Part shown: positions 3,075 through 15,923 of the stretch, in pieces
Position numbering within the stretch: the first letter of the stretch is position 1
Layout: the number at the start of each line of letters is the position of its first letter
Virus record (IMG/VR): IMGVR_UViG_3300037070_007140
Location: 1 to 22,992 of that record
Length of the DNA stretch: 22,992 bases
Strand: one strand, 5' to 3'
From: a virus
Made by a program: the position numbers and the translations under genes
Notes under the pieces: generated by a model
The model's database searches: none
What the model was told of the DNA's origin: nothing
Seen by the model: only the letters and a program-made list of their open reading frames with translations

Positions 3075-4904
3075 TTAGCTCGTCTGGCAGGTCAGCTCGG
3101 TGGTCTCCGGTGCCGCGACGCGACCATCCGGGCAGGTCGTGATCGCCAGGCGATGTCCGGCCTGGGGAGGCCCGACGAGGGCGAGCGACTCGAAGATCTC
3201 GCCCTGCACGGCGTACACGTTCTGCGCGTTGTGGTCGATGTCGCGGGTGACACCGAAGTCGAGCGTGCCGGTGTCGAGGTGGAGGACGTGGTTCCTGGGG
3301 AACAGCCGAGCGATGACCGTGGAGCCGGGCCAGTCGTTCTGCACCGATGCCGTCACCTCGTCGTTCCAGATCTCCTCGGTCGCGCCGACGCCGGTGGCCT
3401 CATCGAGATGCCACGTGACGTCGAACCCGAACCGTGAGATCAGCGCCTCGACCTGATCCGGCGTGACCGAGAACCGGTCGAACTGGCCGTTCACGATGTC
3501 CATCGAGAACATCGCGCGGAGCCAGAACGGCAGGATCACCTGGAAGCGCGTGTTGTCGTCCATCCGGAGCCGCGAGATGATCCCGGCCCGGGAGATCGAC
3601 AGCGCGTACAGCACCGTGCTTGACGTGCCGTACGCCACGTTCGCCGTCAGGTTCAGGAGGAGCGCGTCGAGCTTCTCCAGGAGCCGTCCCTCGGCGATCC
3701 TGGCGAAGATCGCCATCGTCTTCGAGTTCTCGATCGCGACGCCCTCGGGCCACGTGATCGTGTTCAGGTTCCCGTACGTCCGGCAGTGCGACAGGGTGTC
3801 CACGAAGGTGTCGACCCACGTGGCGCAGTCCATGTCGAGGCACGACTTCGTGGCGTACGTTCCGCCCTGGCCGTCCTCGGCTGCCGTGATGACCGTGACC
3901 GCCTCGGCCGCCGTGTCGATCCCCGTGGCACCCGGGATCGAGACGCCGCCCCTGGTGGCGCGGAAGCTCGGGAGCGCGTCGCGCACCGGCCGCCTCGTCG
4001 TCCAGAACTCCGGCAGGTCGTAGAACGGGGTCGGCGGCGCGCAGATCCCGCCGTCCGCCTGGCGGACGAAGCGGCCCATGTTCGCGACCGACTCGGGGAA
4101 GTACGGGTTGCCGATCCCGAGGATCTTCTCGAAGTTCTCGACGCCGTCACGGCCGAGCGTGAACTCGTCCGGGAACGGGAAGTCGACGTGGGCGACCGGG
4201 TGGACGAGACCGTCCCGCCAGCCTGGCCCCTGCCTGACCGGCCCGAGCTTGCGTGCCCGGTCGATCAGCGCCTGCGCGAACCCCATCCGGTCGAGGGACT
4301 TCCCCTCGGACAGGCCGTGGTTCCCGGCGGACGCGAGCAGCACCGCGCGGCCCGACGTGTCGTCGGCGACCTCGCGGGCCTGGTTCGACTTCGGCACCGC
4401 GAACCGCGGGGTCATCCGCGGGGCGGCGCTCGCCTGCACGACCTCGGCGACCTCGGCCTCCGGCTCGACTGCCGTCTCCTCGACGGTGGCCTCCGGCTCC
4501 TCGACCTCGGCCGACGCCTCGTCGTCCGGGGCGGGCTTCTCGTCGTCGTCCTCGTCCTCCGTCTCGGCGGCGAGTTCGGCGACCGGCTCGGCCTCGACCT
4601 CGAACGCCGAGTGCAGTTCGTCGGCCGCCTCGGCGGTGGCCTTCTCGGCCTCGTCGTTCGCGGCCAGCTGCGCCTTGATCCGGGTCGCGTCCGCGGCGGC
4701 GTCCTGCCACTGCTTCACGGCCTCGGCGTCACGCGCGGGCTTCGAGACCTGCTCGCCGAACTCGGCGACGAGGAACGCGTCGGCGTCCTCGGCCTTCAGC
4801 TGCGCGCTCACTGCGCCCATGTCGCGGAGGGTCTCGTGGAGCTTCTCGTCGCCGAGAGCCGAGAGATCCTCCGGAACCTCGGGGAACAATCGCTTGAACT
4901 CCAT
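3075..4904 (-). CDS. Major capsid protein with N-terminal acidic scaffold-like region
   Basis: The protein has 609 residues, longer than a minimal HK97-fold capsid subunit. Residues 1-100 look helical (KLHETLRDMGAVSAQLKAED, then Ala/Glu-rich helices). Residues 101-155 are low-complexity Glu/Asp/Ala/Val/Pro. The rest, from about 165, resembles actinophage major capsid proteins, with PDEFTLGRDG, FWTTRRPVRDALPSFRATRGG and a long helix EGRLLEKLDALLLNL. The N-terminal third probably acts as a fused scaffolding (delta) domain removed by the protease encoded upstream; the cut site is not identifiable here. The ATG has a strong GAGGAGGG site. About 200 nt of non-coding DNA precedes it. Confidence 0.82.
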   Translation of the reverse strand: MEFKRLFPEVPEDLSALGDEKLHETLRDMGAVSAQLKAEDADAFLVAEFGEQVSKPARDAEAVKQWQDAAADATRIKAQLAANDEAEKATAEAADELHSAFEVEAEPVAELAAETEDEDDDEKPAPDDEASAEVEEPEATVEETAVEPEAEVAEVVQASAAPRMTPRFAVPKSNQAREVADDTSGRAVLLASAGNHGLSEGKSLDRMGFAQALIDRARKLGPVRQGPGWRDGLVHPVAHVDFPFPDEFTLGRDGVENFEKILGIGNPYFPESVANMGRFVRQADGGICAPPTPFYDLPEFWTTRRPVRDALPSFRATRGGVSIPGATGIDTAAEAVTVITAAEDGQGGTYATKSCLDMDCATWVDTFVDTLSHCRTYGNLNTITWPEGVAIENSKTMAIFARIAEGRLLEKLDALLLNLTANVAYGTSSTVLYALSISRAGIISRLRMDDNTRFQVILPFWLRAMFSMDIVNGQFDRFSVTPDQVEALISRFGFDVTWHLDEATGVGATEEIWNDEVTASVQNDWPGSTVIARLFPRNHVLHLDTGTLDFGVTRDIDHNAQNVYAVQGEIFESLALVGPPQAGHRLAITTCPDGRVAAPETTELTCQTS

Positions 4905-5104: not shown

Positions 5105-5419
5105 TCAGCCGACCTGCGTGATCTTCCGGCTGACGGAATCGACGGTGCCGTGGAAGACGCAGACCGCGCGTCCGATCGTGTCGCGCTCCCACACCTCGGC
5201 CCAGACCGACTCGGTCTCCGGGCCGTCCTCCTGCTTGTGCCAGGAGCGATCGATGCGGCGACCATCCTGGCTCGCGTTCATCAGGATCCGCGGAGCCTTC
5301 CCGCTGATCGCGTCCTCGACCGGCACGATCCCGAAGGAGCCGCCGTTCACGGTCAGGGTCACCCCGGACTTCGGGCTGACGAACCGCTCGCCGCACTTCA
5401 GGTTCAGGATCTCGCTCAT
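5105..5419 (-). CDS. Hypothetical protein with own promoter
   Basis: This 104-residue protein starts at the ATG 5417-5419, directly behind the conserved leader element at 5422-5488. The sequence (MSEILNLKCGERFVSPKSGV onward) suggests a small mostly beta protein with a hydrophobic strand SFGIVPVED. I see no catalytic motif, membrane segment or Cys cluster. It is the last minus-strand gene of the accessory island and is followed by a hairpin, so it may form a single-gene transcript. Function unknown. Confidence 0.75.
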   Translation of the reverse strand: MSEILNLKCGERFVSPKSGVTLTVNGGSFGIVPVEDAISGKAPRILMNASQDGRRIDRSWHKQEDGPETESVWAEVWERDTIGRAVCVFHGTVDSVSRKITQVG

Positions 5420-5421
5420 CT

Positions 5422-5488
5422 CGTCTCCTCCTCGGGAGTCGCAGTGGATTGACACACGGAATCTAGCACGCCCGGTGGGGGCTGTCAA
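5422..5488 (-). promoter_or_regulatory. Promoter/leader element P1
   Basis: On the minus strand TTGACA (5483-5488) and TAGATT (5460-5465) are separated by exactly 17 nt, an excellent sigma70-type spacing. TGTCA follows 5 nt after the -10. The leader ends in the 20-nt SD block (5422-5441), with C at the variable left position and G at the right, so the pair is C-G. The -35 contains the TGA stop of the preceding gene. Confidence 0.8.
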
Positions 5489-5497
5489 GCCCCCACC
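5474..5497. repeat. Inverted repeat centred on the P1 -35 box
   Basis: GGTGGGGGCT and AGCCCCCACC are perfect 10-bp arms around a GTCA centre. The centre holds both the -35 of P1 and the stop codon of the gene ending at 5485. It could be an operator, a terminator hairpin for the upstream message, or both. No U-tract follows. Confidence 0.7.
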
Positions 5498-6204
5498 TCG
5501 ACCTTGTGCTGCCGGAGCTTCCCGGTGCTCGTCACCGACGTCGTCTGCTTGCAGTGGTTGCAGACCGCCCGCGGGCTGTAGTAGCGGAGGCCGCTGCTGT
5601 CGTGGTCGTGGGTGCCGCTGCCGGGGCACCGGTTCGGGTCGACCGGCTTCGCCTCGCCGACCGTCCACTCGATCGGGGCGGTCGGGAAGCAGACGGTGCA
5701 GAGTGTCGGGCCGTGGGCGGCGACCGCGTCGGCCTCGGTCAGTCCGCTCACCGTCGGGAGCCAGGAGAAGCTCGTGCCCGACCCGAGCCGGTTGCAGGTC
5801 GAGCAGTGCATCGAGGAGTGGATGTGGCCGTTCGAGTTGTTGACGAGGAAGAACCGGCTCCACCGCTCCGCGGCGTACGTGTCGTTCAGCGGCTTCGCCT
5901 CGGCGGCGATCCGGGCCTGCTCGGCCTCGGCGTTCGCGAGCCGGTCGAGCAGGTCGGTGCGGCGGCGCTCGTCCCAGGAGTTGACCTCGGCGGTGCGGGC
6001 CATCTCGGCGACCTCGGCGAGGGAGTGCGGGTACTCGAAGACGAAGCCGCGGCCGCGAGCATCGCGGCGCTCGTCGCGGATGCCGAGCAGCCCGTGCAGG
6101 CTGACCCGGAGGCTCGCCAGGTCGCTGTCGACCTTGTTGGCTGCGCCGTAAAGCTCGGCGAGCCTGGTATCGATCTGCTGTTCTCGTGTGAGTGTCTCGC
6201 TCAT
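5485..6204 (-). CDS. Cys-rich phage protein, putative zinc-binding, unknown function
   Basis: The protein has 239 residues. The ATG at 6202-6204 follows the conserved P2 leader; a longer frame to 6255 would run into the promoter itself. Residues 1-115 look helical and charged, probably coiled coil. Residues 116-180 contain FFLVNNSNGHIHSS, CSTC (134/137) and CTVC (169/172), a pattern I recognise from many actinophage proteins of unknown function. A further pair, CNHC (215/218), lies near the C-terminus. The paired cysteines suggest one or two zinc ribbons. The stop codon is inside the -35 box of P1. Confidence 0.78.
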   Translation of the reverse strand: MSETLTREQQIDTRLAELYGAANKVDSDLASLRVSLHGLLGIRDERRDARGRGFVFEYPHSLAEVAEMARTAEVNSWDERRRTDLLDRLANAEAEQARIAAEAKPLNDTYAAERWSRFFLVNNSNGHIHSSMHCSTCNRLGSGTSFSWLPTVSGLTEADAVAAHGPTLCTVCFPTAPIEWTVGEAKPVDPNRCPGSGTHDHDSSGLRYYSPRAVCNHCKQTTSVTSTGKLRQHKVEVGA

Positions 6205-6206
6205 CT

Positions 6207-6274
6207 CGTGTCCTCCTCGGGACTCGGTTGCTACTGACACTCCGTATTCAAGCACACGTGGTGGGGGTTGTCAA
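6207..6274 (-). promoter_or_regulatory. Promoter/leader element P2
   Basis: TTGACA (6269-6274) is followed by a 17-nt spacer and TTGAAT (6246-6251), the weakest -10 of the six copies. TGTCA follows 6 nt later. The SD block at 6207-6226 has G at the left variable position and C at the right, so the pair is G-C. The -35 contains the stop codon of the gene ending at 6271. Confidence 0.7.
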
Positions 6275-6285
6275 CCCCCACCACG
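6257..6285. repeat. Perfect 13-bp inverted repeat centred on the P2 -35 box
   Basis: CGTGGTGGGGGTT and AACCCCCACCACG are perfect 13-bp arms around a GTC centre, 29 bp in all. The preceding gene's TGA stop and the P2 -35 hexamer lie at the centre. As RNA it is a strong GC-rich hairpin without a U-tract; as DNA it is a good candidate operator. Confidence 0.75.
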
Positions 6286-6495
6286 GCGAACGACGTCGAT
6301 CTCCGTACCGGCCGCCCAGGCCCGCCACTCGCGGCCGCCGTCGGTGAACGCGACGGTGACGGTCGGGGGGCCGCCGGGGCCGCCCTGCGGGAACGCGTCG
6401 CCGAGGGCCGTCCAGTGGTGGTAGCCGTCGGGGCCGTGGAACTCGTCGCCCTCGCGGATCTCCTCCGCCCGGATCGTGATCGTGGTGCCGGTCAT
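6271..6495 (-). CDS. Small hypothetical beta-barrel-like protein
   Basis: This 74-residue protein begins MTGTTITIRAEEIREGDEF, with an AGGAGG site 5 nt upstream of the ATG at 6493-6495. Short strand-like segments with GD, GYHHWTALGD and a C-terminal TEIDVVRR suggest a compact SH3-like beta protein. An alternative GTG at 6568-6570 overlaps the preceding stop and would add 25 residues containing CPYC and a further Cys/His (zinc-knuckle-like). The codons there look coding, so the longer form is a real possibility. The stop lies in the P2 -35 box. Function unknown. Confidence 0.65.
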   Translation of the reverse strand: MTGTTITIRAEEIREGDEFHGPDGYHHWTALGDAFPQGGPGGPPTVTVAFTDGGREWRAWAAGTEIDVVRRGGG

Positions 6496-6563
6496 CTCGT
6501 CCTCCTGGTTGACGTGCAGGGCGCACCTCTCGTCGGGCGCGCAGTACGGGCACCCCGGCACCG

Positions 6564-6770
6564 CTACCACCGGAGCACCGGGTGCTCGGTCGCGTCGGGG
6601 GCCGCGGGGTCGACCTCCACGACCCCGCGGACGAAGTCGCCGCCGGTCAGCGTCGCGGTCACGGCCCGGTGGGCCGCCCGCTCGGACGTCGCGGTCACGG
6701 TCACGATGCGGGTGTGGAGGCTCCCGGCGCTCGGGGCGATCCAGACCTCGTACTCGCGGGCCTCGTTCAT
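6564..6770 (-). CDS. Small hypothetical protein
   Basis: This 68-residue protein starts MNEAREYEVWIAPSAGSLHT. It has alternating hydrophobic residues (RIVTVTATS, VRGVVEV) around a probable helix (SERAAHRAVTAT), consistent with a small alpha/beta fold. A GGGAG site precedes the ATG. The start overlaps the upstream stop by 4 nt (ATGA), indicating translational coupling to the gene at 6767-7126. No known motif was recognised. Confidence 0.65.
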   Translation of the reverse strand: MNEAREYEVWIAPSAGSLHTRIVTVTATSERAAHRAVTATLTGGDFVRGVVEVDPAAPDATEHPVLRW

Positions 6771-7126
6771 GTCGTCTCTCCCTTCGAGATGTCGAGCAGA
6801 TGGTCGGCGCGGTCGACGCGACCGGCCGCCTTCGATTCGGTCTCCTGCCTCCAGCCGCAGGAGCAGCTGGAGTGGTGCTGGTAGATGGCCGCGTAGCCGC
6901 CCCAGGATCGGGAACCGGCGACGTGGGCGTCGTGGTCGAAGTACGCGTGGGCGGCGAGGTCGATCCGTCCGGCGGCGTGGGCCTCGGCGAGCGCGACCGC
7001 GACGGTCTTGCTCGGGAGATCCATGATGAGGACGTTCCCGATCTCGCCGGTCTCCGTTGCCTCGGCGACGTTCCAGCCCTTGAAGTTCCACACGACGAGG
7101 GGGCCGACTGTCGTCAGCTTCGCCAT
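6767..7126 (-). CDS. Small hypothetical protein with CxCGW motif
   Basis: The protein has 119 residues if started at the ATG 7124-7126, which overlaps the upstream TGA by 1 nt (TGATG). A GTG one codon upstream is also possible. The C-terminal segment YQHHSSCSCGWRQE, with C88 and C90, followed by an Ala/Asp/His helix (VDRADHLL), resembles a recurrent actinophage small-protein motif that may bind a metal. It is the middle gene of a three-gene coupled unit driven by P3. No enzymatic function can be assigned. Confidence 0.68.
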   Translation of the reverse strand: MAKLTTVGPLVVWNFKGWNVAEATETGEIGNVLIMDLPSKTVAVALAEAHAAGRIDLAAHAYFDHDAHVAGSRSWGGYAAIYQHHSSCSCGWRQETESKAAGRVDRADHLLDISKGETT

Positions 7127-7344
7127 CACGCGACCACCTTGTACTCGGCCGCGTTGTCCGCCGTGAGCTTCGCGGCGGCGAGCCGGGCGTTCGCGGCGGC
7201 GAGCTTCGCCATCACGATCGCGTACTCGGCGTCGGTCGACGTCCGGTCGGCCTCGCGGACTAGGGCTGCGTACCGACGGCGGTACCGGCGGCGCTCCGCG
7301 TCGTACGCGGTGAGCGCTGCGTTCTGGATCCTGATCCGTTCCAT
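7126..7344 (-). CDS. Small coiled-coil-like hypothetical protein
   Basis: This 72-residue protein is almost entirely Ala/Arg/Glu/Lys-rich, with heptad-like spacing (YDAERRRYRRRYAALVREAD; MAKLAAANARLAAAKLTAD), and is probably one long helix or helical hairpin. The ATG at 7342-7344 sits directly on the end of the P3 SD hairpin. It is the first gene of a minus-strand unit of three overlapping genes. Function unknown. Confidence 0.7.
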   Translation of the reverse strand: MERIRIQNAALTAYDAERRRYRRRYAALVREADRTSTDAEYAIVMAKLAAANARLAAAKLTADNAAEYKVVA

Positions 7345-7410
7345 CGTCTCCTCCTCGGGAGTCGTTTACCTGACACGACGGACTCTAGCATATCCCTGGT
7401 GGGGTGTCAA
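7345..7410 (-). promoter_or_regulatory. Promoter/leader element P3, divergent partner of P4
   Basis: TTGACA (7405-7410), a 17-nt spacer and TAGAGT (7382-7387) are near-consensus. TGTCA follows 6 nt after the -10. The SD block at 7345-7364 has the C-G variable pair and abuts the ATG. The -35 is 25 bp from that of P4 on the other strand, so the two promoters could be co-regulated. Confidence 0.82.
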
Positions 7411-7435
7411 GCCCGACGTGATTCGACCGAGGCAC

Positions 7436-7502
7436 TTGACAACCCCTACACGACCTGCTAGAGTCCGTCGTGTCAAGGTAATCGAGTCCCGAGGAGGACA
7501 CG
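7436..7502 (+). promoter_or_regulatory. Promoter/leader element P4
   Basis: TTGACA (7436-7441), a 17-nt spacer and TAGAGT (7459-7464) precede TGTCA at 7471-7475. The SD block at 7483-7502 has the G-C variable pair. It drives the plus-strand genes starting at 7506. Confidence 0.82.
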
Positions 7503-7505
7503 AAG

Positions 7506-7745
7506 ATGCAGAAGTTCCCCACCACCGTCGCCCAGTTCCGCCGCCAGGCCGTGCAGGGCTTCAAGCGGGCGAACCCCGAGGCCGCGGACACGCTGGTCAT
7601 CACGTGGGAGTTCGGCCCCGAGGCCGTCACGTTCCCGACCGGCATCACCGGCTTCTCCGGGGTCGCGATCGCTCGGGCCGACGGGTTCAAGACGAAGACG
7701 ATCGTCGCGACCGCCACCCGCGAGACCGGGCTGATGGTGCGCTGA
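7506..7745 (+). CDS. Small hypothetical protein
   Basis: The protein has 79 residues and starts MQKFPTTVAQFRRQAVQGFK directly behind P4. An amphipathic N-terminal helix is followed by strand-like segments (DTLVITWEFG, FSGVAIARAD, KTIVATATR), suggesting a compact alpha/beta protein. The stop overlaps the next ATG by 1 nt (TGATG). No known family recognised. It heads a three-gene plus-strand unit embedded in the accessory island. Confidence 0.72.
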   Translation: MQKFPTTVAQFRRQAVQGFKRANPEAADTLVITWEFGPEAVTFPTGITGFSGVAIARADGFKTKTIVATATRETGLMVR

Positions 7746-8101
7746 TGGAGACCCGCCTCTGCTCCGCGCTCCTCGCGATCGAGCATCCGCTCGGCGGCCG
7801 CCTCGACTCGTCCGGGATCTGCGGCGACTGCGGCCGCATCCACCAGGACGCCGCCGAGGCCCGAACGGAGTGCGGCCACATGTGTCGCGGCGGCGACGGC
7901 GTCGTCCGGTCGTGCGACCTGAAGGCCGGGCACACCGGTCTCCACGGGAAGACGATCGTGCTGCGCGGCTCGATGTCCGGGACGTACCGGTCGACTACGA
8001 ACTGGGGCGACGACGGTCTCGCGTGGCACGCGACCCGCGGACGCTCATACGACAACGGGCGGTCATGGGTCGCCCACCAGGACGGGAGGATCGGAGTCTG
8101 A
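7745..8101 (+). CDS. Small Cys/His-rich hypothetical protein
   Basis: This 118-residue protein uses the ATG at 7745, which overlaps the preceding TGA by 1 nt. The N-terminal half has a dense metal-ligand pattern: C26, C29 and H33, then C43, H45, C47, C57, H63 and H67. The CDLKAGHTGLHGK stretch resembles small zinc-binding motifs. The C-terminal half is aromatic and polar (TNWGDDGLAWHATRGRSY). It ends with another TGATG overlap. A nucleic-acid-binding role is possible but not shown. Confidence 0.7.
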   Translation: METRLCSALLAIEHPLGGRLDSSGICGDCGRIHQDAAEARTECGHMCRGGDGVVRSCDLKAGHTGLHGKTIVLRGSMSGTYRSTTNWGDDGLAWHATRGRSYDNGRSWVAHQDGRIGV

Positions 8102-8385
8102 TGCCAGCAATGCGAACAGTCGAGTACCCGGCCCCGCTCGATGGCGGCGAGATCATCGCGACGCCGAGCAGGATCCAGGTCGGCACCACCACCCTCGTCG
8201 TCGTCAAGACGACGGACGGCCGGTTCCAGATCGAGGCGGCCTGCCTCCGGCACGGGAACGAAGGGCCGGTCTGGAGGGCGCAGCGTGTCGTCTTCGTCGC
8301 GAAGTCGAAGCGGGAGATCCGCGCCTGGTTCGCCGGGCGGGAGTTCAACCCGGGCGGCCCCGTCGGAACCCCCGTCGGGTTCTGA
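8101..8385 (+). CDS. Small hypothetical protein
   Basis: The protein has 94 residues. The ATG at 8101 overlaps the upstream stop, and GGGAGGA lies about 10 nt upstream; a second ATG three codons later is an alternative start. Strand-like segments (TTTLVVVKTTDGRFQIEA, QRVVFVAKSKREI) suggest a small beta-rich domain, with a Gly/Pro-rich tail. It ends 1 nt before the stop of the convergent glycosyltransferase gene, leaving no room for a separate terminator. Function unknown. Confidence 0.68.
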   Translation: MPAMRTVEYPAPLDGGEIIATPSRIQVGTTTLVVVKTTDGRFQIEAACLRHGNEGPVWRAQRVVFVAKSKREIRAWFAGREFNPGGPVGTPVGF

Positions 8386-8386
8386 G

Positions 8387-9010
8387 TCAGTCGCCGGTGA
8401 ACCAGGCCGCGACGCGCGCAACGTTGCGTCCGGCCTGGTTCTTCCGGCCGATCAGGCTCGGCTCGATGTCGGGGTGCTGGACGAGGCACGGGAGCGGCAC
8501 CATCACCCGTGCCTTCGTCTTCAGCGCCCACCGTCCCGTCCAGCCGTCGTCACCGATCAGCGGCTGCCGCGGCGAAGCGTTCGCGACCTTCTCGTCCATC
8601 ACCGTCAGGAACGCGGCGGCCGACGCGACCGGCCAGACGAGCGCGACGGTTGGCACCATCGGCGGGCTGTAGATCCTGGCCCAGTCCTGCCCGGCCTGGC
8701 GGGCCATGTGGACGGTGCGGCGGAAGACGCCGTTGCCCGGGACGAACAGCGGCAGGAGCGCGTCGGGTTCCTGCTCGATCGCGGCGGCGAGGCGGGCCTC
8801 GAAGCTCGCGCACGGGAGCGCGTCGTCCTGCACGACCACGAGGTGCGTCACGTCGGCCGGGACTCGGCGGAGGCATTCGAGGTAGCAGCGGAGCGGCGAC
8901 CGGAGCGGCTCGTCTGCGCCGGGGTCGGGCACGACCTCGGACGGGCCGAGCGCCGCCTGGAGCGCGGGGAGGAGGGCTGCTCGGTCGGGGTGGTGCTGGA
9001 TGCGAATCAG
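8387..9010 (-). CDS. Glycosyltransferase-like protein, probable non-standard start
   Basis: The conserved-looking part includes HLVVVQDDALPC, a metal/sugar-nucleotide DD motif as in GT-A-fold enzymes, then LLPLFVPGNGVF and LIGDDGWTGRW, as in phage-encoded glycosyltransferases. The first GTG is at 8930-8932 (181 residues). The frame remains open upstream, and its codons read IRIQHHPDRAALLPAL, which looks like the true N-terminus of this family. A CTG at 9008-9010 with GGGAGGGG 11 nt upstream would give 207 residues. I use this extended form, with the GTG form as the conservative alternative. The start region overlaps the plus-strand promoter P5. Confidence 0.7.
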   Translation of the reverse strand: MIRIQHHPDRAALLPALQAALGPSEVVPDPGADEPLRSPLRCYLECLRRVPADVTHLVVVQDDALPCASFEARLAAAIEQEPDALLPLFVPGNGVFRRTVHMARQAGQDWARIYSPPMVPTVALVWPVASAAAFLTVMDEKVANASPRQPLIGDDGWTGRWALKTKARVMVPLPCLVQHPDIEPSLIGRKNQAGRNVARVAAWFTGD

Positions 9011-9014
9011 GTAC

Positions 9015-9081
9015 TTGACAACCCCTCCCGGTGTGCTAGAGTACGTGGTGTCAGAAGCAAGCGAGTCCCGAGGAGGACACG
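9015..9081 (+). promoter_or_regulatory. Promoter/leader element P5
   Basis: TTGACA (9015-9020), a 16-nt spacer and TAGAGT (9037-9042) are followed by TGTCA 6 nt later. The SD block at 9062-9081 has the G-C variable pair and abuts the ATG at 9082. Its -35 side overlaps the probable ribosome site of the divergent glycosyltransferase gene. Confidence 0.82.
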
Positions 9082-9579
9082 ATGTATCGCAAGAGCACCA
9101 GCCAGAACATGAGCCGCCCCCTCTACAAGTGCTGCGACTACTGCGGCCGGAACGATCACAAGGTCGCCGTTCGCGTCGAGCGCACGCGGAACCGGCAGGG
9201 GAACCTGAGCCACCCGGTCGTCGGGTACTGCACCAGCTGCTACGCCCTGAACGTCGAGCGGAACACCGAGACCGCCTGGCCGGTGCCCGGCACGGTCGTC
9301 TACGACACCCGCGGCCCCGCCGCCATGAAGAAGCACCCGACGGTGAAGGCGGCCCCGAAGCCGGTCGCCGGGTACGCCGTCTTCGCAGTCGCGAACGGCG
9401 AGACCTTCCGGGTCTCCGGAGTGATGACCGAGACCGAGGCCCACGAGATGTGGGATCGCCTCGACACCGCCGGACACGACACCTTCCGGTTCTTCGAGGT
9501 GCGGCAGGTCGTCGCGACCGGTGACGACTTCCGGGCCGAGGGACGCCACGACCGAGCGCCGTTCGCGGAGGTGGGGTAG
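9082..9579 (+). CDS. Putative zinc-ribbon hypothetical protein
   Basis: This 165-residue protein starts directly after the P5 leader. The N-terminal third carries CCDYC (17, 18, 21) and CTSC (50, 53), a typical four-cysteine zinc-ribbon arrangement with basic residues between. The C-terminal half (YAVFAVANGETFRVSG, then helix TETEAHEMWDRLDTAG) looks like a small alpha/beta domain. It is followed 3 nt later by the next plus-strand gene. A nucleic-acid or protein-binding role is plausible but not proven. Confidence 0.75.
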   Translation: MYRKSTSQNMSRPLYKCCDYCGRNDHKVAVRVERTRNRQGNLSHPVVGYCTSCYALNVERNTETAWPVPGTVVYDTRGPAAMKKHPTVKAAPKPVAGYAVFAVANGETFRVSGVMTETEAHEMWDRLDTAGHDTFRFFEVRQVVATGDDFRAEGRHDRAPFAEVG

Positions 9580-9582
9580 GCG

Positions 9583-9873
9583 ATGACCAGAGCGGAGACG
9601 TACCTGGAGAAGCTCGTGACCCGCCCGGAGACCGCGGCGAAGAAAATCGCGAAGATCCGCGGGCACGAGGGTCGGGAGGGCGGATGGATCTACACCGCCG
9701 ACGGCCGCCCGATCTGCCAGGGGTGGCACGAGTACGCGAGACGGATGCAGGGCGCGCACCTGATCGGCCAGGACGCCGAGACCGGCAAGTGGTACGTGTC
9801 GGTCGTGTCGCTCCCCCACGCCGACTGGCTCGCCGCCGAGCAGCTGTTCGGTCACTCGGCGATGAGCGCGTGA
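9583..9873 (+). CDS. Small hypothetical protein
   Basis: The protein has 96 residues and starts MTRAETYLEKLVTRPETAAK. GGAGG lies about 11 nt upstream, and the start is 3 nt after the previous stop. Its N-terminal helix is followed by a strand-rich part with many Trp, Tyr and His (GWIYTADGRPICQGWHEY, GKWYVSVVSL). Its last 22 nt overlap the end of the protease gene on the opposite strand, a tail-to-tail overlap. Function unknown. Confidence 0.72.
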   Translation: MTRAETYLEKLVTRPETAAKKIAKIRGHEGREGGWIYTADGRPICQGWHEYARRMQGAHLIGQDAETGKWYVSVVSLPHADWLAAEQLFGHSAMSA

Positions 9874-11267
9874 AGCGCTGCGGTGCCGCCGTCCATCAGG
9901 GCGGCGGCCGCACGCCCGGCAGCCGACCGGCCGACCGGCTCCCCGATCTGACACGTGAGGATCATCGTCGACACGTACATCTCGCCGTCCGCACTCGCGG
10001 CGAGCGCGACCTGGGACGGGACGCCGTAGCCGGGGATCGCGACCGTGACCGCCGCGATCAGTTCGAGATCGTGCGGGCTATTGCCGCGCCAGTCACCCGA
10101 CTGAGCGTTCGCCCGCAGCGCGGCGATCTGCTCCTCGGTGATGCCGGGGCGCAGCTGCCCGGAGAACCAGATGCCGAGGCGGCCGTCGACCGCACGGACG
10201 TACGCACCGGCGGCACCGTTCTTGTCGTAGAACCGCTTCGCCGCAGCCGGTGTCCCGGACGCGGGGGCGTGCCCGGCGTCGGACACCATGAGCTTCCCGA
10301 TCGGGATGACGTCTCCCTCGGCGGTCTCGACGTGTCCGGACGAGTGGAACTCCTGGTACCCGGAGATCGAGTGGGGCGGCGTGACGCACTGCGACCACGC
10401 GCCATTTATGAGGCCGACGTGGCAGGCGTCCCAGGGGGCGAGGTGCCCGTACACCTCGTACCCGTCAACCGTGAGCGGCGTCAGGACGTCCGCCTCGGGA
10501 CGGAAGAAGATCGAGCGGGGCGGGTTCAGCGGCGGCTCGGGCCGGTCGGCGGCCGCGAGCAGCACCAGTGGTGCCAGTGGTGCCACCTCGTGCGCGGACG
10601 CCTGGAGCGTCGTCATCAGGTAGCCCTCCGGCACCCCGAGCTTCTCGGCACCCTCGGCGCTCGCGAACCACGCGTGCGGCATCCAGGGTGTCCGGTCAGC
10701 ACTCGCGAGGAGCGCGATCTTCGCGTCGGCGAACGCGGGGGTCGGGCAGACGGTCGCGGCCATGATCTCGGCGTCGAGGATCGCGAACTCCATCAGCCCG
10801 GCCATCGCGGCCTCCCACTGCTCCTGCGTGGCGTCGTCCGGGGCGACGATGTCGCCGGAGTCTGGATCCCTCAGCGCCCAGTCGTGGATCGCGAGGTCGA
10901 CGCTGATGCCGGTCACGGTCTGCGAGTCCACGAGCCGTTCGGTGTCAGCGCCCCAGTCGCCGATGTCGAAGAAGCCGGTCGAGCGGACGAGGGTCACGCC
11001 GTCGGGCAGCTGCTCACCGCTGATGCGGGGGCCGTCCGACTTGTCGAACGTGTCCATCCGTCCGGCGACCTGAGCGCCGAGGTGGCCGCCCTCCGTCGTC
11101 TCCATCATGGACATCAGGGTCAGCGGGGGGGTGCGCCACCGGAGCGCGTCCGGGGCCATGTAGCGGCCGTCACCGGTCGACATGCCCTCGTACGCGATGT
11201 CGGAGACCCACGGCCTGCCGGTCGCCGGTTCCTGCGCCTCGGTGGTATCGACCTCGACTGCCGACAT
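9852..11267 (-). CDS. Capsid maturation (prohead) protease, internal start of the fused frame
   Basis: An ATG at 11265-11267 with a strong GAGGAGGACAGC leader would start a separate 471-residue protein, MSAVEVDTTEAQEPATGRPW onward. The first half contains VTGISVDLAIHDWALRDPDSG and an Ala-rich helix. The second half resembles actinophage capsid maturation proteases: YGHLAPWDACHVGL, CVTPPHSISGYQEFH, GKLMVSDAGHA, AGAYVRAVDGRLGIWFSGQLRP and LRANAQSGDWRGN. I do not assign catalytic residues. It would cleave the capsid N-terminal region during head maturation. Placement after MuF fits the family order, but the capsid gene is about 4.9 kb further on because of the accessory island. Confidence 0.8.
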   Translation of the reverse strand: MSAVEVDTTEAQEPATGRPWVSDIAYEGMSTGDGRYMAPDALRWRTPPLTLMSMMETTEGGHLGAQVAGRMDTFDKSDGPRISGEQLPDGVTLVRSTGFFDIGDWGADTERLVDSQTVTGISVDLAIHDWALRDPDSGDIVAPDDATQEQWEAAMAGLMEFAILDAEIMAATVCPTPAFADAKIALLASADRTPWMPHAWFASAEGAEKLGVPEGYLMTTLQASAHEVAPLAPLVLLAAADRPEPPLNPPRSIFFRPEADVLTPLTVDGYEVYGHLAPWDACHVGLINGAWSQCVTPPHSISGYQEFHSSGHVETAEGDVIPIGKLMVSDAGHAPASGTPAAAKRFYDKNGAAGAYVRAVDGRLGIWFSGQLRPGITEEQIAALRANAQSGDWRGNSPHDLELIAAVTVAIPGYGVPSQVALAASADGEMYVSTMILTCQIGEPVGRSAAGRAAAALMDGGTAALHALIAE

Positions 11268-13193
11268 GCTGTCCTCCTCGCTCGCGTCCTGGAAGGCTAC
11301 CCCGACCCCGGCCGGTGCCCGTGCCGCCCGGGCCGTAGGATGTGACTCGTGATCGATCCCGCGCAGGCCCGAGCCGACGGCTGGACGGAGGAGCAGATCA
11401 TCGAGTGGGTGATGGATCTCGGCCGGGTCGACCGTCTCACCGCGATCAACTGGATCGCGGCCCTGGAGCGCGGCGAGTCGCCCTGGGAAGACGTCGTTGA
11501 GATCCCCCGAGGCGACCAGATCGTCTCCCAGTAGCCCGGCTTCGCGGAGGACGCCCTCGATCGCCTCGGCGATCGGAGCGAACTCCTCGTCCGTCCAGTC
11601 CGACCGGAAGTCGAGGCCGCCACGGCGAGCCTTGCCCGCTAGCTCGTCCTGGATGAACACGTGCAGAAGCTCGCGCTCCTCCATGCTCCCATGACGCTTC
11701 GTCATCCAGTGCGCGAACGCCCTGGCCCACTGCTCGTGCGGACGCTCCAGGTACTCGGCCTTCTCCTGGAGCCGCTTCAGGTTCGCGCCCTTGATGACGC
11801 GGCCGTCATCGAGCGTGATCTGCGTCTTCCGGGCCAGCACCTTCTGTAGCCCCTTCGACTGGTCGGTCGCGGCGACGCGCTCCACGAACCTCGACATCCA
11901 TCCGCGTTCGGCCCCCGACTTCGCGACCTGCGACATGAACGTCGCCGACCGGGTCTCTAGCGACAGCACGGCGTGGTCGAGCCAGTGGCCGACCTCGTGC
12001 ATCGTCGTGTTGTAGATCGAGTGCTCGTACGACGCCCGGCTGCCGGGACGTACCTCGATCTGGATCGGTGACTTGCCCATGTTGCTGTAGCGACCGTACG
12101 CGCCGAGTTCGGCGTTCGCCTTGATCGGCAGCTGCCCCCCGACCGGCGTCAGCCTTTCGGCGGCGGCGTCGGAGATGCCGCCCGGCAGCGCCTCATCGAG
12201 GTCGGCTGCCACCTTGTCCATCGTCTCGAAGAAGTCGACCTGATCGTCCGTCATGAAGTCGCGACGCATCGTCTCCTTCGGCATCTGCATCAGCTGCGAC
12301 GGTGCCCTCGCGCCGCGGGGCGCGACGATCATCGGTTCGGTCGGCTCCGGCTCGGCCCGGGTTGCCTCGGGCGCGCGGACGCGTTCCTCGTACGTCTCGG
12401 TGCAGCGGCAGTTGCAGACCTCGGAGTTCGGGCCGAACGGGTCGCCGGGGTAGCTCATCATCGAGCCGCCGACGTTGTACGGCTGCCCGACCGGGACGTT
12501 CTGCCCGTCGGCCTGCTGGTGCGTGTCCCGCACCCTCGCATCCCCGGCACTGAGCCACGTCTTCGTCTCGAACGGCTTCGACTCCTGGTTCTGCTGCGCC
12601 GCCGCGTTCAACTCCTGGACGGCCCACTGGTTCGCCCCGTTGTTCATCCCGGTGAGGTCGGTGCGCGCCAGCATCGTCGCCTGCGACCGGGTGACGCCGA
12701 GCGCCGCCGCCTGGATGTACTTCGCGGTCTGCGGCACCGGCGCGCCCTCCGCCCACCCCCGCGTGATCGCGGTCACGACCGGCTCCCGGATCGCCTCCGA
12801 CAGCGCCGCCGCACGGACGCCCATCTGGTTCAGGATCTGCTGCGGCATCGGCGCGATCAGCCCGAACCCGACAGCGACCCCGCCCGGCGTCGCGAGTCCG
12901 GCCTCCTGGATGGTGCCGGTGATCGCGCCCATCATCGACGCCTGCGCCTGCCGGATCCTGGCGGTCTCGACCTGCACCGCGAGGACGTCGGCGGCCGTCG
13001 GGGGCGTCCAGTCCGCGGACGCCTGGAGGATCCCGACCAGCTGCACGAACCGCTTCGCGACGAGGCGGCTGATGCGGCGTAGCTCGCGCTCGTACGCGCG
13101 CGCGAGGGCGGCCTCCTCCTCGACAGCGGCTAGCTCGGTCGCGAGCCGGACGGCCTGGAGTTGCTCACCGAGCGACAGCCGTATCGTTGCCAC
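9852..13193 (-). CDS. MuF-like minor head protein with HExxH domain, fused in frame to capsid protease
   Basis: The uninterrupted frame encodes 1113 residues from a GTG at 13191-13193, with GGGAGGA upstream, overlapping the portal stop by 29 nt. Residues 165-270 match MuF head-morphogenesis proteins: ARTDLTGMNNGANQW, then DARVRDTHQQADGQNV, then PGDPFGPNSEVCNCRC. Residues 399-403 are HEVGH, with H407 nearby and HEQWARAFAHWM at 486-497 as a possible third-ligand helix, suggesting a zincin-like metallopeptidase. Around residue 557 the natural-looking sequence stops. Residues 558-642 are poor in protein-like features and lie opposite a plus-strand open frame. Residues 643-1113 are the protease. 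MuF is an internal or injected head protein in many phages. Whether the fusion is made, or two products, is open. Confidence 0.75.
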   Translation of the reverse strand: MATIRLSLGEQLQAVRLATELAAVEEEAALARAYERELRRISRLVAKRFVQLVGILQASADWTPPTAADVLAVQVETARIRQAQASMMGAITGTIQEAGLATPGGVAVGFGLIAPMPQQILNQMGVRAAALSEAIREPVVTAITRGWAEGAPVPQTAKYIQAAALGVTRSQATMLARTDLTGMNNGANQWAVQELNAAAQQNQESKPFETKTWLSAGDARVRDTHQQADGQNVPVGQPYNVGGSMMSYPGDPFGPNSEVCNCRCTETYEERVRAPEATRAEPEPTEPMIVAPRGARAPSQLMQMPKETMRRDFMTDDQVDFFETMDKVAADLDEALPGGISDAAAERLTPVGGQLPIKANAELGAYGRYSNMGKSPIQIEVRPGSRASYEHSIYNTTMHEVGHWLDHAVLSLETRSATFMSQVAKSGAERGWMSRFVERVAATDQSKGLQKVLARKTQITLDDGRVIKGANLKRLQEKAEYLERPHEQWARAFAHWMTKRHGSMEERELLHVFIQDELAGKARRGGLDFRSDWTDEEFAPIAEAIEGVLREAGLLGDDLVASGDLNDVFPGRLAALQGRDPVDRGETVDPAEIHHPLDDLLLRPAVGSGLRGIDHESHPTARAARAPAGVGVAFQDASEEDSMSAVEVDTTEAQEPATGRPWVSDIAYEGMSTGDGRYMAPDALRWRTPPLTLMSMMETTEGGHLGAQVAGRMDTFDKSDGPRISGEQLPDGVTLVRSTGFFDIGDWGADTERLVDSQTVTGISVDLAIHDWALRDPDSGDIVAPDDATQEQWEAAMAGLMEFAILDAEIMAATVCPTPAFADAKIALLASADRTPWMPHAWFASAEGAEKLGVPEGYLMTTLQASAHEVAPLAPLVLLAAADRPEPPLNPPRSIFFRPEADVLTPLTVDGYEVYGHLAPWDACHVGLINGAWSQCVTPPHSISGYQEFHSSGHVETAEGDVIPIGKLMVSDAGHAPASGTPAAAKRFYDKNGAAGAYVRAVDGRLGIWFSGQLRPGITEEQIAALRANAQSGDWRGNSPHDLELIAAVTVAIPGYGVPSQVALAASADGEMYVSTMILTCQIGEPVGRSAAGRAAAALMDGGTAALHALIAE
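11349..11534 (+). CDS. Possible 61-residue gene antisense to the MuF-protease junction
   Basis: A GTG at 11349-11351, with AGGA about 9 nt upstream, opens a 61-residue frame with a well-balanced composition: MIDPAQARADGWTEEQII, then EWVMDLGRVDRLTAINWIAAL, then a polar tail. By my count about 54 of its 61 codons end in G or C, against about 44 of 61 for the overlapping minus-strand frame, and the minus-strand translation there looks non-native. No P-type promoter is visible upstream. It may be a real small helical protein or a relic between two once-separate structural genes. Confidence 0.5.
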   Translation: MIDPAQARADGWTEEQIIEWVMDLGRVDRLTAINWIAALERGESPWEDVVEIPRGDQIVSQ

Positions 13194-15048
13194 GGAGACC
13201 GATCCTCCCGACGAGGTCTGCTGGTAGTGGCTCCGGCGTGTGGAGCGTCAGCGCGAACCACTGCGCGAGCGCGGGCAGGAGGTTCGACGCGTCGTACCCG
13301 AGTCCCTCCGCGATCGCGACGAACTCGGCGGTGATCTGCTCGATCGCGACTGTCGGCCGCAGCCCGAGCTTCTCCAGCGTCTCGCCGTCGAGGGCGGCGA
13401 GGAGATCCTGGTTCGGGACGTCCTCCAGCCCGGCGAGGCAGTCGGGGCAGGAGCGCTTCCGGCCGCGGACGTACGCGCCGATCTTCGCGCGGGCGCGCTG
13501 GTCGGCGAACACGATGATCCGCCGCTTCATCTCGGCCTGATCCGGCGTCTCCGACTCGCGCTCCTCGTCCGGCGGCTGCTCGTCCGGTGGCCCCGACGAG
13601 TCGGTCGCGGACTGATCCTCCGACTCGACCCCGGCGATCGCCGAGTCCTTCATCGCGATCGCCCGGAACCAGTCGAGTTCCTCGCCCTCCATCATGTCTT
13701 CCTCCGACCAGCCGTTCGCGTTCAGCACCGGCAGCCCCGCGAGCAGACCTTCCTGGTGCAACTTGATCGCGGTCGCGCCGCGGTCGGGGTCGGACACGAG
13801 GTCGGAGTAGTCGTAGTGAACGAAGATGTCTGGATCCTTCCCGGACGCCAACAGCATCGGGCGGAGGTAGACGGCGGTGGTGTCGTCGCAGAAGCCGGAC
13901 ACCCACGGCTCCGTCAGCTGCCACTTCTCGTCCTCGATCTTCCAGGCCGTCCAGTGGTTCGCCTGCGACATCCCGGTCATCGCCTCCGGCGGCAACGGCA
14001 GGTTCTGCGACAGCCGCTTGATGATCGACTCCTCCCGCTGCGACACGAACACGAGGGACTGGCTGCCCTCGTGCGTGTGGAGCATCCGCATCTCCTTCAG
14101 GTACTCGGCCTTCCCCTCGATCACGCCCGGGACGGCGGCGGTCGCGGAGCCGGGGTCGGAGATCGCGGTCATCATCACCTCGCCGACGTACTCGACCAGG
14201 GTGCCGTCCTCGGTGTCCTCGTCCGCGCCTTCCTGGTCGATCGCCCCCGGCGGCTTCCAGTCGAGTTCGATCGGGGCGAGGAGGAACCCGTTGTCGGCGA
14301 TCCGGTTCTGGAGGTCGGCGCGCTCGCCCATCGTCAGCCACCACAACTGCTCGTACAGGTCGAGCACCGGGCGCACCGGGCTGTCGGCTAGCTCGGACGC
14401 CTCGGGGTGCGGACGCCAGAACCTCCACGTCCGCATCTCGCCCGGCTCCGGATCCGCGCCCTCCTCATCCGAGGAGATATTCCGGTATGTGATCCGCTGG
14501 CCCTGACCGTACGGAGACCGGACGATCAGGCGGTTCTGGTCGGTCAGCTTGATCTCGACGGGGGAGAAGCAGTCCCACCGGACAGGGGCGTCGTCCTCGT
14601 CGTCGTGGTCGCGGTACTGACACAACCGGGTCTCGCCGACGAGCCACATCAGGAGTCCGTACTTGAACGCGACGCGCTGGAGCACGTCGACGGCGTCGAC
14701 GACGTCGGGATCCATGTCCCGCGTGATCTCCTCGGGCTTCCCGTCGTCGCCCATCACGGCCGGGAAGAACCGCATCTTCGACATCGCGGTCGGGATGAAC
14801 TGCGCCGGGTTCCAGCACTCCCCGAGCATGTTGTAGTAGCCGAGCGACCGGGACTGCCACTGCTGCACCGGCATCACCGGGACAGCGCCGCGACGCTCGT
14901 CGCCGTTCTGCCGTTCCGGCGACAGCGACACGGCCGCGCCCGTGATGACAACGGGATCCATCTCGAACCGGTGCTCGGCCCGAGACGGGTTAGCGCGGCT
15001 CAGCTGCCCCCGGAGACGAGGCCCACCTCGACGTGGGAACAGCGGCAC
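13165..15048 (-). CDS. Portal protein
   Basis: This 627-residue protein fits a siphophage portal in length, position and sequence. It precedes MuF and has RSLGYYNMLGECWNPAQFIP near the N-terminus, a central EQLWWLTMGERADLQNRIADNG segment, and SQNLPLPPEAMTGMSQANHW followed by EDEKWQLTEPWV. Residues near 490-520 are acidic and disordered. The C-terminal part is helical, with CPDCLAGL. It forms the ring at the capsid vertex for DNA entry and exit. The start is a GTG immediately after the TAG of the 17-residue peptide, with no ribosome site of its own, so it probably depends on coupled translation. Confidence 0.85.
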   Translation of the reverse strand: MPLFPRRGGPRLRGQLSRANPSRAEHRFEMDPVVITGAAVSLSPERQNGDERRGAVPVMPVQQWQSRSLGYYNMLGECWNPAQFIPTAMSKMRFFPAVMGDDGKPEEITRDMDPDVVDAVDVLQRVAFKYGLLMWLVGETRLCQYRDHDDEDDAPVRWDCFSPVEIKLTDQNRLIVRSPYGQGQRITYRNISSDEEGADPEPGEMRTWRFWRPHPEASELADSPVRPVLDLYEQLWWLTMGERADLQNRIADNGFLLAPIELDWKPPGAIDQEGADEDTEDGTLVEYVGEVMMTAISDPGSATAAVPGVIEGKAEYLKEMRMLHTHEGSQSLVFVSQREESIIKRLSQNLPLPPEAMTGMSQANHWTAWKIEDEKWQLTEPWVSGFCDDTTAVYLRPMLLASGKDPDIFVHYDYSDLVSDPDRGATAIKLHQEGLLAGLPVLNANGWSEEDMMEGEELDWFRAIAMKDSAIAGVESEDQSATDSSGPPDEQPPDEERESETPDQAEMKRRIIVFADQRARAKIGAYVRGRKRSCPDCLAGLEDVPNQDLLAALDGETLEKLGLRPTVAIEQITAEFVAIAEGLGYDASNLLPALAQWFALTLHTPEPLPADLVGRIGLRGNDTAVAR

Positions 15049-15102
15049 CTACTTGCCGCCGCCGCCGCCGACACGCGGCGTCTTCTTCCCGCAGTTGCAC
15101 AT
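15049..15102 (-). CDS. 17-residue Cys/Gly peptide upstream of portal
   Basis: An ATG at 15100-15102 with GAGGAG 8 nt upstream encodes the 17-residue peptide MCNCGKKTPRVGGGGGK, ending in TAG directly against the portal GTG. The CxC pair and poly-Gly tail are unusual. It may be a real small protein or a leader peptide that delivers ribosomes to the portal start. I favour at least a coupling role, since portal lacks its own ribosome site. Confidence 0.5.
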   Translation of the reverse strand: MCNCGKKTPRVGGGGGK

Positions 15103-15126
15103 GCCAGTCTCCTCGGTCGATCGACC

Positions 15127-15141
15127 CTCGTAGTCTACGAG
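15127..15141. repeat. Short inverted repeat upstream of the 17-residue peptide
   Basis: CTCGTAG and CTACGAG flank a single base, giving a possible 6-bp RNA hairpin with a 3-nt loop. It lies in the 61-nt gap between the DUF1360-like gene and the portal leader peptide, just before the ribosome site. Function unknown. Confidence 0.35.
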
Positions 15142-15163
15142 CGGCCCGAGCGGGGCCGTGCCG

Positions 15164-15478
15164 TCAGCGGTCGGTCGCGATATTGATCGTGATCTGGATG
15201 AACACGACGACGGCGAGGATCGCCCAGAGGCTCGCGAACCACGACGAGAAGTCGGGCCAGAGCGTCCAGGACAGCCAGACGGCTCCGCCGATCCATGCGC
15301 CACCGCAGTACGGGCACTCGATCCACTCCCGCCGCTTCGTGCTCGGTGGTGCCACCCGGTCGCGTACGCGGTTCAGAAGCTCGTCCTCGGCGAGGAGATG
15401 CCAGATCCTCCAGGCGGCCAGGGTGAGCAGCAGGAACGTCCAGGGGCCGGGGAGATCCACGGGTCGAGTGTCGCACAT
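15164..15478 (-). CDS. DUF1360-like small membrane protein
   Basis: This 104-residue protein begins near MCDTRPVDLPGPWTFLLL, with a GTG six codons later as an alternative start. It has hydrophobic segments at about 13-29 and 76-100, and a weaker one near 57-73. The order matches DUF1360-type membrane proteins: a first helix with LAAWRIWHLLAEDELLNRVRD, then a Cys pair in ECPYCGGAW, then the last membrane helix. The molecular role of this family is not established. No clear ribosome site is seen, and its 5' end is only 5 nt from the plus-strand promoter P6. Confidence 0.72.
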   Translation of the reverse strand: MCDTRPVDLPGPWTFLLLTLAAWRIWHLLAEDELLNRVRDRVAPPSTKRREWIECPYCGGAWIGGAVWLSWTLWPDFSSWFASLWAILAVVVFIQITINIATDR

Positions 15479-15483
15479 CGGGC

Positions 15484-15549
15484 TTGACAACCCGTGCCGA
15501 CCTGCTAGAGTACGTGGTGTCAGAGCATTCGATTCCCGAGGAGGAGACG
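15484..15549 (+). promoter_or_regulatory. Promoter/leader element P6
   Basis: TTGACA (15484-15489), a 16-nt spacer and TAGAGT (15506-15511) are followed by TGTCA 6 nt later. The SD block at 15530-15549 has T at the left variable position and G at the right, a T-G (U-G) wobble. It drives the plus-strand four-gene cassette and lies outside the main island. Confidence 0.82.
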
Positions 15550-15551
15550 AC

Positions 15552-15923
15552 ATGACCGCAGCCGCCCACACCACCGCCGTCAAGATCACCACCCCGACCG
15601 GCGAGGTCGAGTACCGGATGGGTGTCGTCGCCTCCGCCGTCGTGCGGGAGATCCGCGAGGCCGGTGGCACGATCGGAATCGGCGAGGGCGAGTACCGCAT
15701 CGCCCCGATCCACCCGGAGAAGGTGCCCGTCGAGCACGGCGGCGGCTTCACCGGGGAGTTCAAGGTCGGCGAGTTCGTGACGGTCGAGCACATCGGCGTC
15801 GCGAAGACCGGCCGGATCGTGAAGGTCACCCCCACCCGCGTCGCGGTCGAGGTCGTCGTCTACGGCGGCACCACCCGCGAGACGACGAAGGTCATCACGC
15901 GGGCGAAGGCGGCGTGTCGGTGA
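15552..15923 (+). CDS. Hypothetical protein with KOW/SH3-like C-terminus
   Basis: The protein has 123 residues and starts MTAAAHTTAVKITTPTGEVE directly behind P6. The C-terminal half (FKVGEFVTVEHIGVAKTGRI, then VKVTPTRVAVEVVVYGG) has the short alternating strands and GxV/G turns of a KOW or SH3-like barrel, which often binds RNA or protein. The family call is tentative. It is the first of four plus-strand genes that overlap one another. Confidence 0.7.
   Translation: MTAAAHTTAVKITTPTGEVEYRMGVVASAVVREIREAGGTIGIGEGEYRIAPIHPEKVPVEHGGGFTGEFKVGEFVTVEHIGVAKTGRIVKVTPTRVAVEVVVYGGTTRETTKVITRAKAACR

What the first reader, a model, noticed from the sequence alone, without database searches (positions are those of the whole stretch)
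5422..15549. Six-copy 5' leader whose SD-containing hairpin shows covariation
Six promoters on both strands (P1-P6) end in the same 20-nt block around the Shine-Dalgarno sequence. It can pair as CGA-N-TCC with GGA-N'-ACG around a CGAGGA loop, with one conserved A-A mismatch. The only variable stem positions change together: C-G (P1, P3), G-C (P2, P4, P5) and U-G (P6). Such compensatory change implies selection for an RNA hairpin that partly occludes the SD, or for a protein-binding site. I know of no named phage element with this form. With six copies the support is modest.
Basis: partly seen in the sequence, partly recalled or inferred. Interest (0 to 1): 0.78.

Follow-up and report, generated by a model that had tools for sequence, protein, structure and literature searches.

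The report
Phage leaders with ribosome-site RNA hairpin
Six small genes of an uncultured virus of actinobacteria each start with the same promoter and a short RNA hairpin that half hides the ribosome's landing site; paired bases of this hairpin change together here and in two unrelated virus lineages, so the hairpin itself is probably selected, most likely to control translation.

Summary
In detail: six promoters on both strands lead into a 20-nt block that is identical at 18 positions, lies 0-3 nt before ATG, and whose two variable positions always pair (C-G, G-C, U-G). Six copies alone are weak (1 of 20 arrangements). I found 13 more copies in four related contigs: 19/19 pair, against 20/38 in chance hits. 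A scan for promoter, SD and ATG that put no condition on the stem then found two other actinophage lineages (G008/G009, G010) whose leaders have the same hairpin plan, NNCC-[loop ending GGA]-GGN'N'. There a different pair varies, through A-U, G-C, U-A and G.U. Selection for an RNA hairpin holding the last GG of the SD in its stem is therefore well supported. The outer CG/CG pairs and A-A mismatch are not: three relatives break them. A named analogue does exist: the Start-Associated Sequences (SAS/ESAS) of cluster K mycobacteriophages and Microbacterium cluster EF. Sequence, SD position in the hairpin, both-strand orientation and location within the structural region differ, so this is SAS-like, not an SAS. 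Best reading: a dispersed promoter/leader cassette giving shared translational control. The regulator, and the sign of its effect, are unknown.

The parts
5422..5441 (-). P1 leader hairpin block CGACTCC-CGAGGA-GGAGACG, 2 nt before ATG 5419
6207..6226 (-). P2 leader hairpin block CGAGTCC-CGAGGA-GGACACG
7345..7364 (-). P3 leader hairpin block (C-G form), ATG directly follows
7483..7502 (+). P4 leader hairpin block (G-C form)
9062..9081 (+). P5 leader hairpin block (G-C form), ATG directly follows
15530..15549 (+). P6 leader hairpin block (U-G form)
5460..5488 (-). P1 promoter TTGACA-N17-TAGATT; -35 at the centre of a 10-bp perfect inverted repeat GGTGGGGGCT/AGCCCCCACC
6246..6274 (-). P2 promoter TTGACA-N17-TTGAAT; -35 at the centre of a 12-bp perfect inverted repeat
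7382..7410 (-). P3 promoter TTGACA-N17-TAGAGT, then TGTCA box
7436..7464 (+). P4 promoter TTGACA-N17-TAGAGT; CTTGACA/TGTCAAG inverted repeat across -35 and start region
9015..9042 (+). P5 promoter TTGACA-N16-TAGAGT, then TGTCA box at 9049
15484..15511 (+). P6 promoter TTGACA-N16-TAGAGT, then TGTCA box at 15518
5105..5419 (-). gene behind P1, 104 aa, no family match
5485..6204 (-). gene behind P2, 239 aa, phrog_2433 (unknown function)
7126..7344 (-). gene behind P3, 72 aa, no family match
7506..7745 (+). gene behind P4, 79 aa, no family match
9082..9579 (+). gene behind P5, 165 aa, Cys-rich N terminus, no family match
15552..15923 (+). gene behind P6, 123 aa, no family match

Best explanation
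Each copy is a promoter plus 5' leader cassette. Host-type RNA polymerase starts near the TGTCA box (inferred from its position 6 nt after the -10). The resulting ~35-nt leader folds a 4-bp hairpin, (C/G/U)UCC-CGAGGA-GGA(G/C), just before AUG (sequence conservation shown; folding predicted). The SD AGGAGG is split: AGGA lies in the loop, the final GG in the stem. Compensatory changes keep the stem while the loop stays fixed (shown in the sequences). Most likely (inferred) the hairpin is a shared translational control element: a weak, about -5 kcal/mol, half-masked ribosome site whose opening, or recognition by a phage or host factor, sets together the translation of scattered accessory and early genes. 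The promoter part carries its own inverted repeats and probably adds transcriptional control. It works like an SAS/ESAS pair but with other sequences.
For: Six exact copies only at gene starts. Thirteen further copies in G001-G004, whose MCP, MuF and portal are 29-51% identical to the window's where present (G001, G003, G004); the genes behind the leaders have no detectable homologue there, so the leader, not the gene, is conserved. N/N' pairs in 19/19 (C-G 12, G-C 6, U-G 1; 0/500 shuffles) against 8/18 and 12/20 in chance hits. P3 and P4 leaders differ at 3 of 28 nt, two being N and N' (I21). About 5 joint switches on a tree of the upstream region (weakly supported). The G-C form folds only in this register. 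G008/G009: the pair next to GG is AU 6, GC 5, UA 2, GU 1 in 14/15 copies (permutation P 3e-4). G010: AU, GC, GU in 17/17. Those loci were found without any stem condition. Background SD sites reach 4 bp in 16-27%. In G001 the leader precedes ERF recombinase, DUF932 and GATase genes.
Against: Within the window family only one of the pairs varies; TCC/GGA never does, and could be fixed for other reasons. The outer pairs break in G001. The stem is weak, so masking may be slight. Shuffles ignore shared ancestry; copies may have spread by recombination. Not all TGTCA-box leaders have this hairpin: G013 mismatches, G005-G007 use another register (CTCC-NNN-GGAG), L308 and L370 show none. No regulator was identified. 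No expression or probing data exist, and no cultured phage I tested carries the element.
Confidence: 0.66

Rival explanations
1. DNA operator: the block is an inverted repeat, GTCC-N6-GGAC or CTCC-N6-GGAG, bound by a dimeric repressor, and its overlap with the SD is incidental.
For: The promoters carry further inverted repeats (10-12 bp around the -35 in P1 and P2, TTGACA/TGTCA elsewhere), so DNA-binding control is likely somewhere in the cassette. ESAS was read this way.
Against: Always in one orientation and 0-3 nt from ATG. P6 and several copies in G008-G010 hold the stem by G-U, which is no symmetry in DNA. A protein reading the base would not tolerate C-G to G-C swaps. The loop contains part of the SD in every lineage.
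Confidence: 0.12
2. Strong SD plus history: the block is just an efficient ribosome site copied among genes; the N/N' linkage comes from shared ancestry, recombination, or template-switch mutation at a short inverted repeat, without selection on structure.
For: The G-C form is confined to G000 and G002, which share near-identical copies; only one pair varies; six copies alone give 1 in 20.
Against: Both forms occur in both promoter subtypes and in the nearly identical divergent leaders P3 and P4. The conserved mismatch was not 'corrected'. Unrelated lineages G008/G009 and G010 vary a different pair in the same hairpin plan. Conservation extends beyond any pairing to 16S rRNA.
Confidence: 0.14
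3. The hairpin acts on the RNA rather than on initiation: a 5'-proximal stem that stabilises the leader, or a processing/attenuation site.
For: Short leader, hairpin 15-20 nt from the inferred start; one G001 copy has an extra GC-rich hairpin between promoter and block.
Against: No U-tract; the hairpin is placed on the SD rather than at the 5' end in every lineage; its loop always contains GGA of the SD.
Confidence: 0.08

Closest known systems
Start-Associated Sequence (SAS) of cluster K mycobacteriophages, GGGATAGGAGCCC (PMC3203893, PMC11373665, PMC12699233)
   Same: Repeated, unusually conserved SD block a few nt before ATG of scattered genes; short complementary arms around an SD-containing loop; conservation goes beyond 16S pairing; function unknown in the papers.
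   Different: Other sequence; SD wholly in the loop and 3' arm CCC, whereas here the last GG of the SD is in the stem. In 7 cluster K phages sampled the arms are mostly invariant and departures mostly break pairs, so no clean covariation. K copies lie on one strand outside structural genes; here on both strands inside the structural region.
Extended SAS (ESAS), promoter with 15-17-bp imperfect inverted repeat (PMC3203893, PMC11373665)
   Same: SigA-like -35/-10 overlapped by inverted repeats directly upstream of the SD block.
   Different: Different repeat (TTGACA/TGTCA, or 10-12 bp around the -35); much shorter right arm.
SAS/ESAS of Microbacterium cluster EF phages, GGGAAAGGACCCC (PMC7302621)
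   Same: Ten copies at gene starts with an upstream motif centred on GTAGAG, which resembles the TAGAGT -10 here.
   Different: Sequence, loop and arms differ.
CsrA/RsmA-type and phage-operator SD hairpins (general knowledge)
   Same: GGA of the SD displayed in a small hairpin loop, stem free to covary.
   Different: No CsrA found in the five contigs, all fragments; no binding protein known.

Membership tests
SAS (cluster K) | Match to GGGATAGGAGCCC with at most 2 mismatches | tested here: not met
   No window site with fewer than 3 mismatches; count at chance
SAS (cluster K) | Repeated SD-containing block within a few nt of start codons, mostly ATG | tested here: met
   6/6 at 0-3 nt before ATG
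SAS (cluster K) | One orientation, in the non-structural half | tested here: not met
   Three per strand, within the MCP-MuF-portal region
SAS (cluster K) | Short complementary arms around the SD loop | tested here: met
   4-bp stem, 19/19 pairing at the variable pair; K: GGG/CCC
ESAS | Promoter with long imperfect inverted repeat upstream of the SD block | tested here: inconclusive
   Promoters present; perfect 10-12-bp repeats in P1 and P2, only 5-7 bp in P3-P6
Any Rfam family | Score at or above the gathering threshold | tested here: not met
   No Rfam 15 match in the window or in L340, L297, L283, L270
CsrA-type translational control | CsrA homologue present | tested here: inconclusive
   PF02599 absent from five incomplete contigs; the host is unknown
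Translational operator hairpin | Binding protein and regulation shown | not testable with these tools
   Needs experiment

The most novel reading that the evidence does not exclude
An undescribed, widespread class of actinophage leader: a promoter with TGTCA start box followed by a hairpin that holds the last GG of the SD in its stem, with lineage-specific fixed loops (CGAGGA, GCACCGGA, AAGGA/CCAAGGA) and a freely covarying stem, read by a phage-encoded or host RNA-binding factor that switches translation of a whole dispersed regulon.
Probability: 0.33. Interest if true: 0.76.

Novelty: new variant of a known kind. Interest (0 to 1): 0.6.

Why it matters
Start-associated sequences have been known since 2011 with no known function. 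These leaders give covariation evidence that such SD blocks can act as RNA hairpins rather than as plain strong ribosome sites or DNA sites. They supply several lineages and compensated natural variants with which to test translational control of phage regulons in actinobacteria.

Tried and rejected
Pattern TTGACA..TCCNNNNGGANNANACG was mis-built and is ignored. Exact promoter pattern: no hits. Letting two stem pairs vary: only known family members plus coding chance hits. Genome contigs: 18 hits, chance; L075 has ATG behind it but no convincing promoter. 57 MCP relatives and a covariance model of the six blocks: members only in G000-G004; the best other hit, L168, is coding. De novo SD repeats in those relatives: none convincing. 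INPHARED blastn: chance or single sites. DUF3310, proposed in PMC11373665 as a possible SAS factor: not found, but the control did not ring either. The outer CG/CG stem and A-A mismatch were rejected as supported features. Pairing of N' with the upstream GTGTC was rejected: that box is constant while N' changes.

Full report
What is there. The window is an IMG/VR virus fragment of 22,992 bases. It carries the portal (13165-15048), a MuF-like protein (9852-13193), the major capsid protein (3075-4904) and a collagen-like protein, all leftward. By the nearest portals it is an actinophage, but no cultured phage matches at DNA level. Six small genes, three on each strand, sit in or beside this structural region. 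Each is preceded by a -35/-10 promoter, a TGTCA box after the -10, a variable spacer of about 6-9 nt, a 20-nt block and, 0-3 nt later, ATG. TCCCGAGGAGGA occurs six times exactly and nowhere else.

Family. An IMG/VR scan for TCCCGAGGAGGANACG, which leaves both variable positions and the 5' arm free, gave 30 stretches. Those with a promoter and ATG come from four contigs, G001-G004, with 6, 4, 2 and 1 copies. G001, G003 and G004 share MCP, MuF and/or portal with the window at 29-51% identity; the genes behind the leaders have no detectable homologues there. In G001 the promoter is different (CAGGCATGATT as the -10 region) but the block is the same. The block is therefore conserved independently of gene and of promoter.

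Covariation. In all 19 copies the two variable positions pair: C-G 12, G-C 6, U-G 1. Chance hits of the same pattern pair in 8/18 and 12/20 cases. Shuffling partners reproduces complete pairing in 9e-5 of trials (17 copies); the window's six copies alone give 1 in 20. A tree of the upstream region asks for about five joint switches, but it is weakly supported and recombination is possible. The cleanest case is P3 versus P4, divergent leaders alike over 28 nt: of three differences two are N and N' (I21). Folding gives about -5 kcal/mol for C-G and G-C and -2.4 for the U-G form and for the mismatches in this register; the G-C form cannot use the alternative register with a CGA triloop. The inner UCC/GGA pairs never vary. 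The outer C-G and G-C pairs vary only by breaking, in three G001 copies.

Independent lineages. Contigs with several copies were searched whole for the leader pattern. In G008 and G009 (related to each other) the leaders read NNCC-GCACCGGA-GGN'N'; the pair next to GG is AU 6, GC 5, UA 2, GU 1, unpaired 1, permutation P about 3e-4; the exception re-pairs with a bulge. In G010 (130 kb, 17 copies) they read GACC-AAGGA-GGTC or GCC-CCAAGGA-GGC, with AU, GC and GU at the same pair and a UG next to the loop. The G010 subset with a single loop length (12 copies) is not significant by itself in the shuffle test of the covariation score (76/500); the all-copy test is (P 0.00025 for at least 3 bp). All share the window's plan: loop ends in GGA, stem starts with GG, both parts of the SD. 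Ordinary SD sites nearby reach 4 bp in 16-27% and 3 bp in 40-57%. Not every TGTCA-box leader does this: G005-G007 show GACTCC-NNN-GGAGG (another register, fixed stem, variable 3-nt loop), G013 has a mismatch, L308 and L370 nothing. The lineages examined were chosen for having several copies, after seeing the hits; that is a mild selection effect.

Comparison. SAS of cluster K phages are 13-bp SD blocks, GGGATAGGAGCCC, 3-7 bp before start codons, with ESAS inverted repeats that contain SigA-like promoters (PMC3203893; PMC11373665); Microbacterium EF phages have GGGAAAGGACCCC (PMC7302621). I re-read SAS in seven cluster K phages and one EF phage: the arms are nearly always GGG/CCC, and departures mostly break the pair. 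The present element fails the SAS sequence test and the orientation and location features, but matches in plan. It works like an SAS/ESAS; it is not one. Rfam has no match.

Mechanism. Shown: repeated leader, fixed loop, covarying stem across lineages, strict placement on the SD. Predicted: weak hairpin, start of transcription at the TGTCA box. Inferred: control of translation, by tuning or by a factor that reads the loop. A fixed loop with a free stem favours recognition by something, but SD function alone also fixes GGA. G001 places the leader before ERF recombinase, DUF932 and glutamine-amidotransferase genes, so the set includes early-type functions; in the window the genes look like accessory insertions in the structural operon.

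Noticed in passing
window 5465-5488(-) and 6246-6280(-): The -35 boxes of P1 and P2 sit at the centre of perfect 10- and 12-bp inverted repeats; on the other strand they resemble the cluster A stoperator GGTGGMTGTCAAG (5 of the 6 promoters match within 2 mismatches). Possible repressor sites.
   Followed up: partly
window 298-1446(-): Collagen-like Gly-Pro-X repeat protein of 382 aa in the structural operon, giving most of the window's direct repeats.
   Followed up: no
window 7345-7502: P3 and P4 are divergent and form a near-perfect inverted pair (28 nt plus 41 nt arms), a bidirectional control region.
   Followed up: partly
G001 2229-2278(-) (L057): One leader copy lacks the -35 and carries a GC-rich hairpin, CCGGGCGGCG-CATT-CGCCGCCCGG, between the -10-like motif and the SD block, before an ERF recombinase gene.
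   Followed up: no
L376: Leader TAGAGTCCTCCTTGTC-ATCAC-GACAAGGAGGACTTTCGCATG in which a long perfect stem, starting within the -10, would fully bury the SD.
   Followed up: no
G010 (L340): Several leaders have a second upstream stem, TGTCAAGG/CCTTGACA, before the SD hairpin, and the promoters carry a TTGACAC/GTGTCAA inverted repeat.
   Followed up: no
G005-G007 (L313, L283, L324): About 150-kb phage contigs with 22 leaders GACTCC-NNN-GGAGG: fixed stem, variable triloop, another SD-hairpin design behind the same promoter box.
   Followed up: partly
all window-family blocks: The 5' arm always contains GANTC (GACTC, GAGTC or GATTC) except in G003 11396; probably a by-product of the stem.
   Followed up: no
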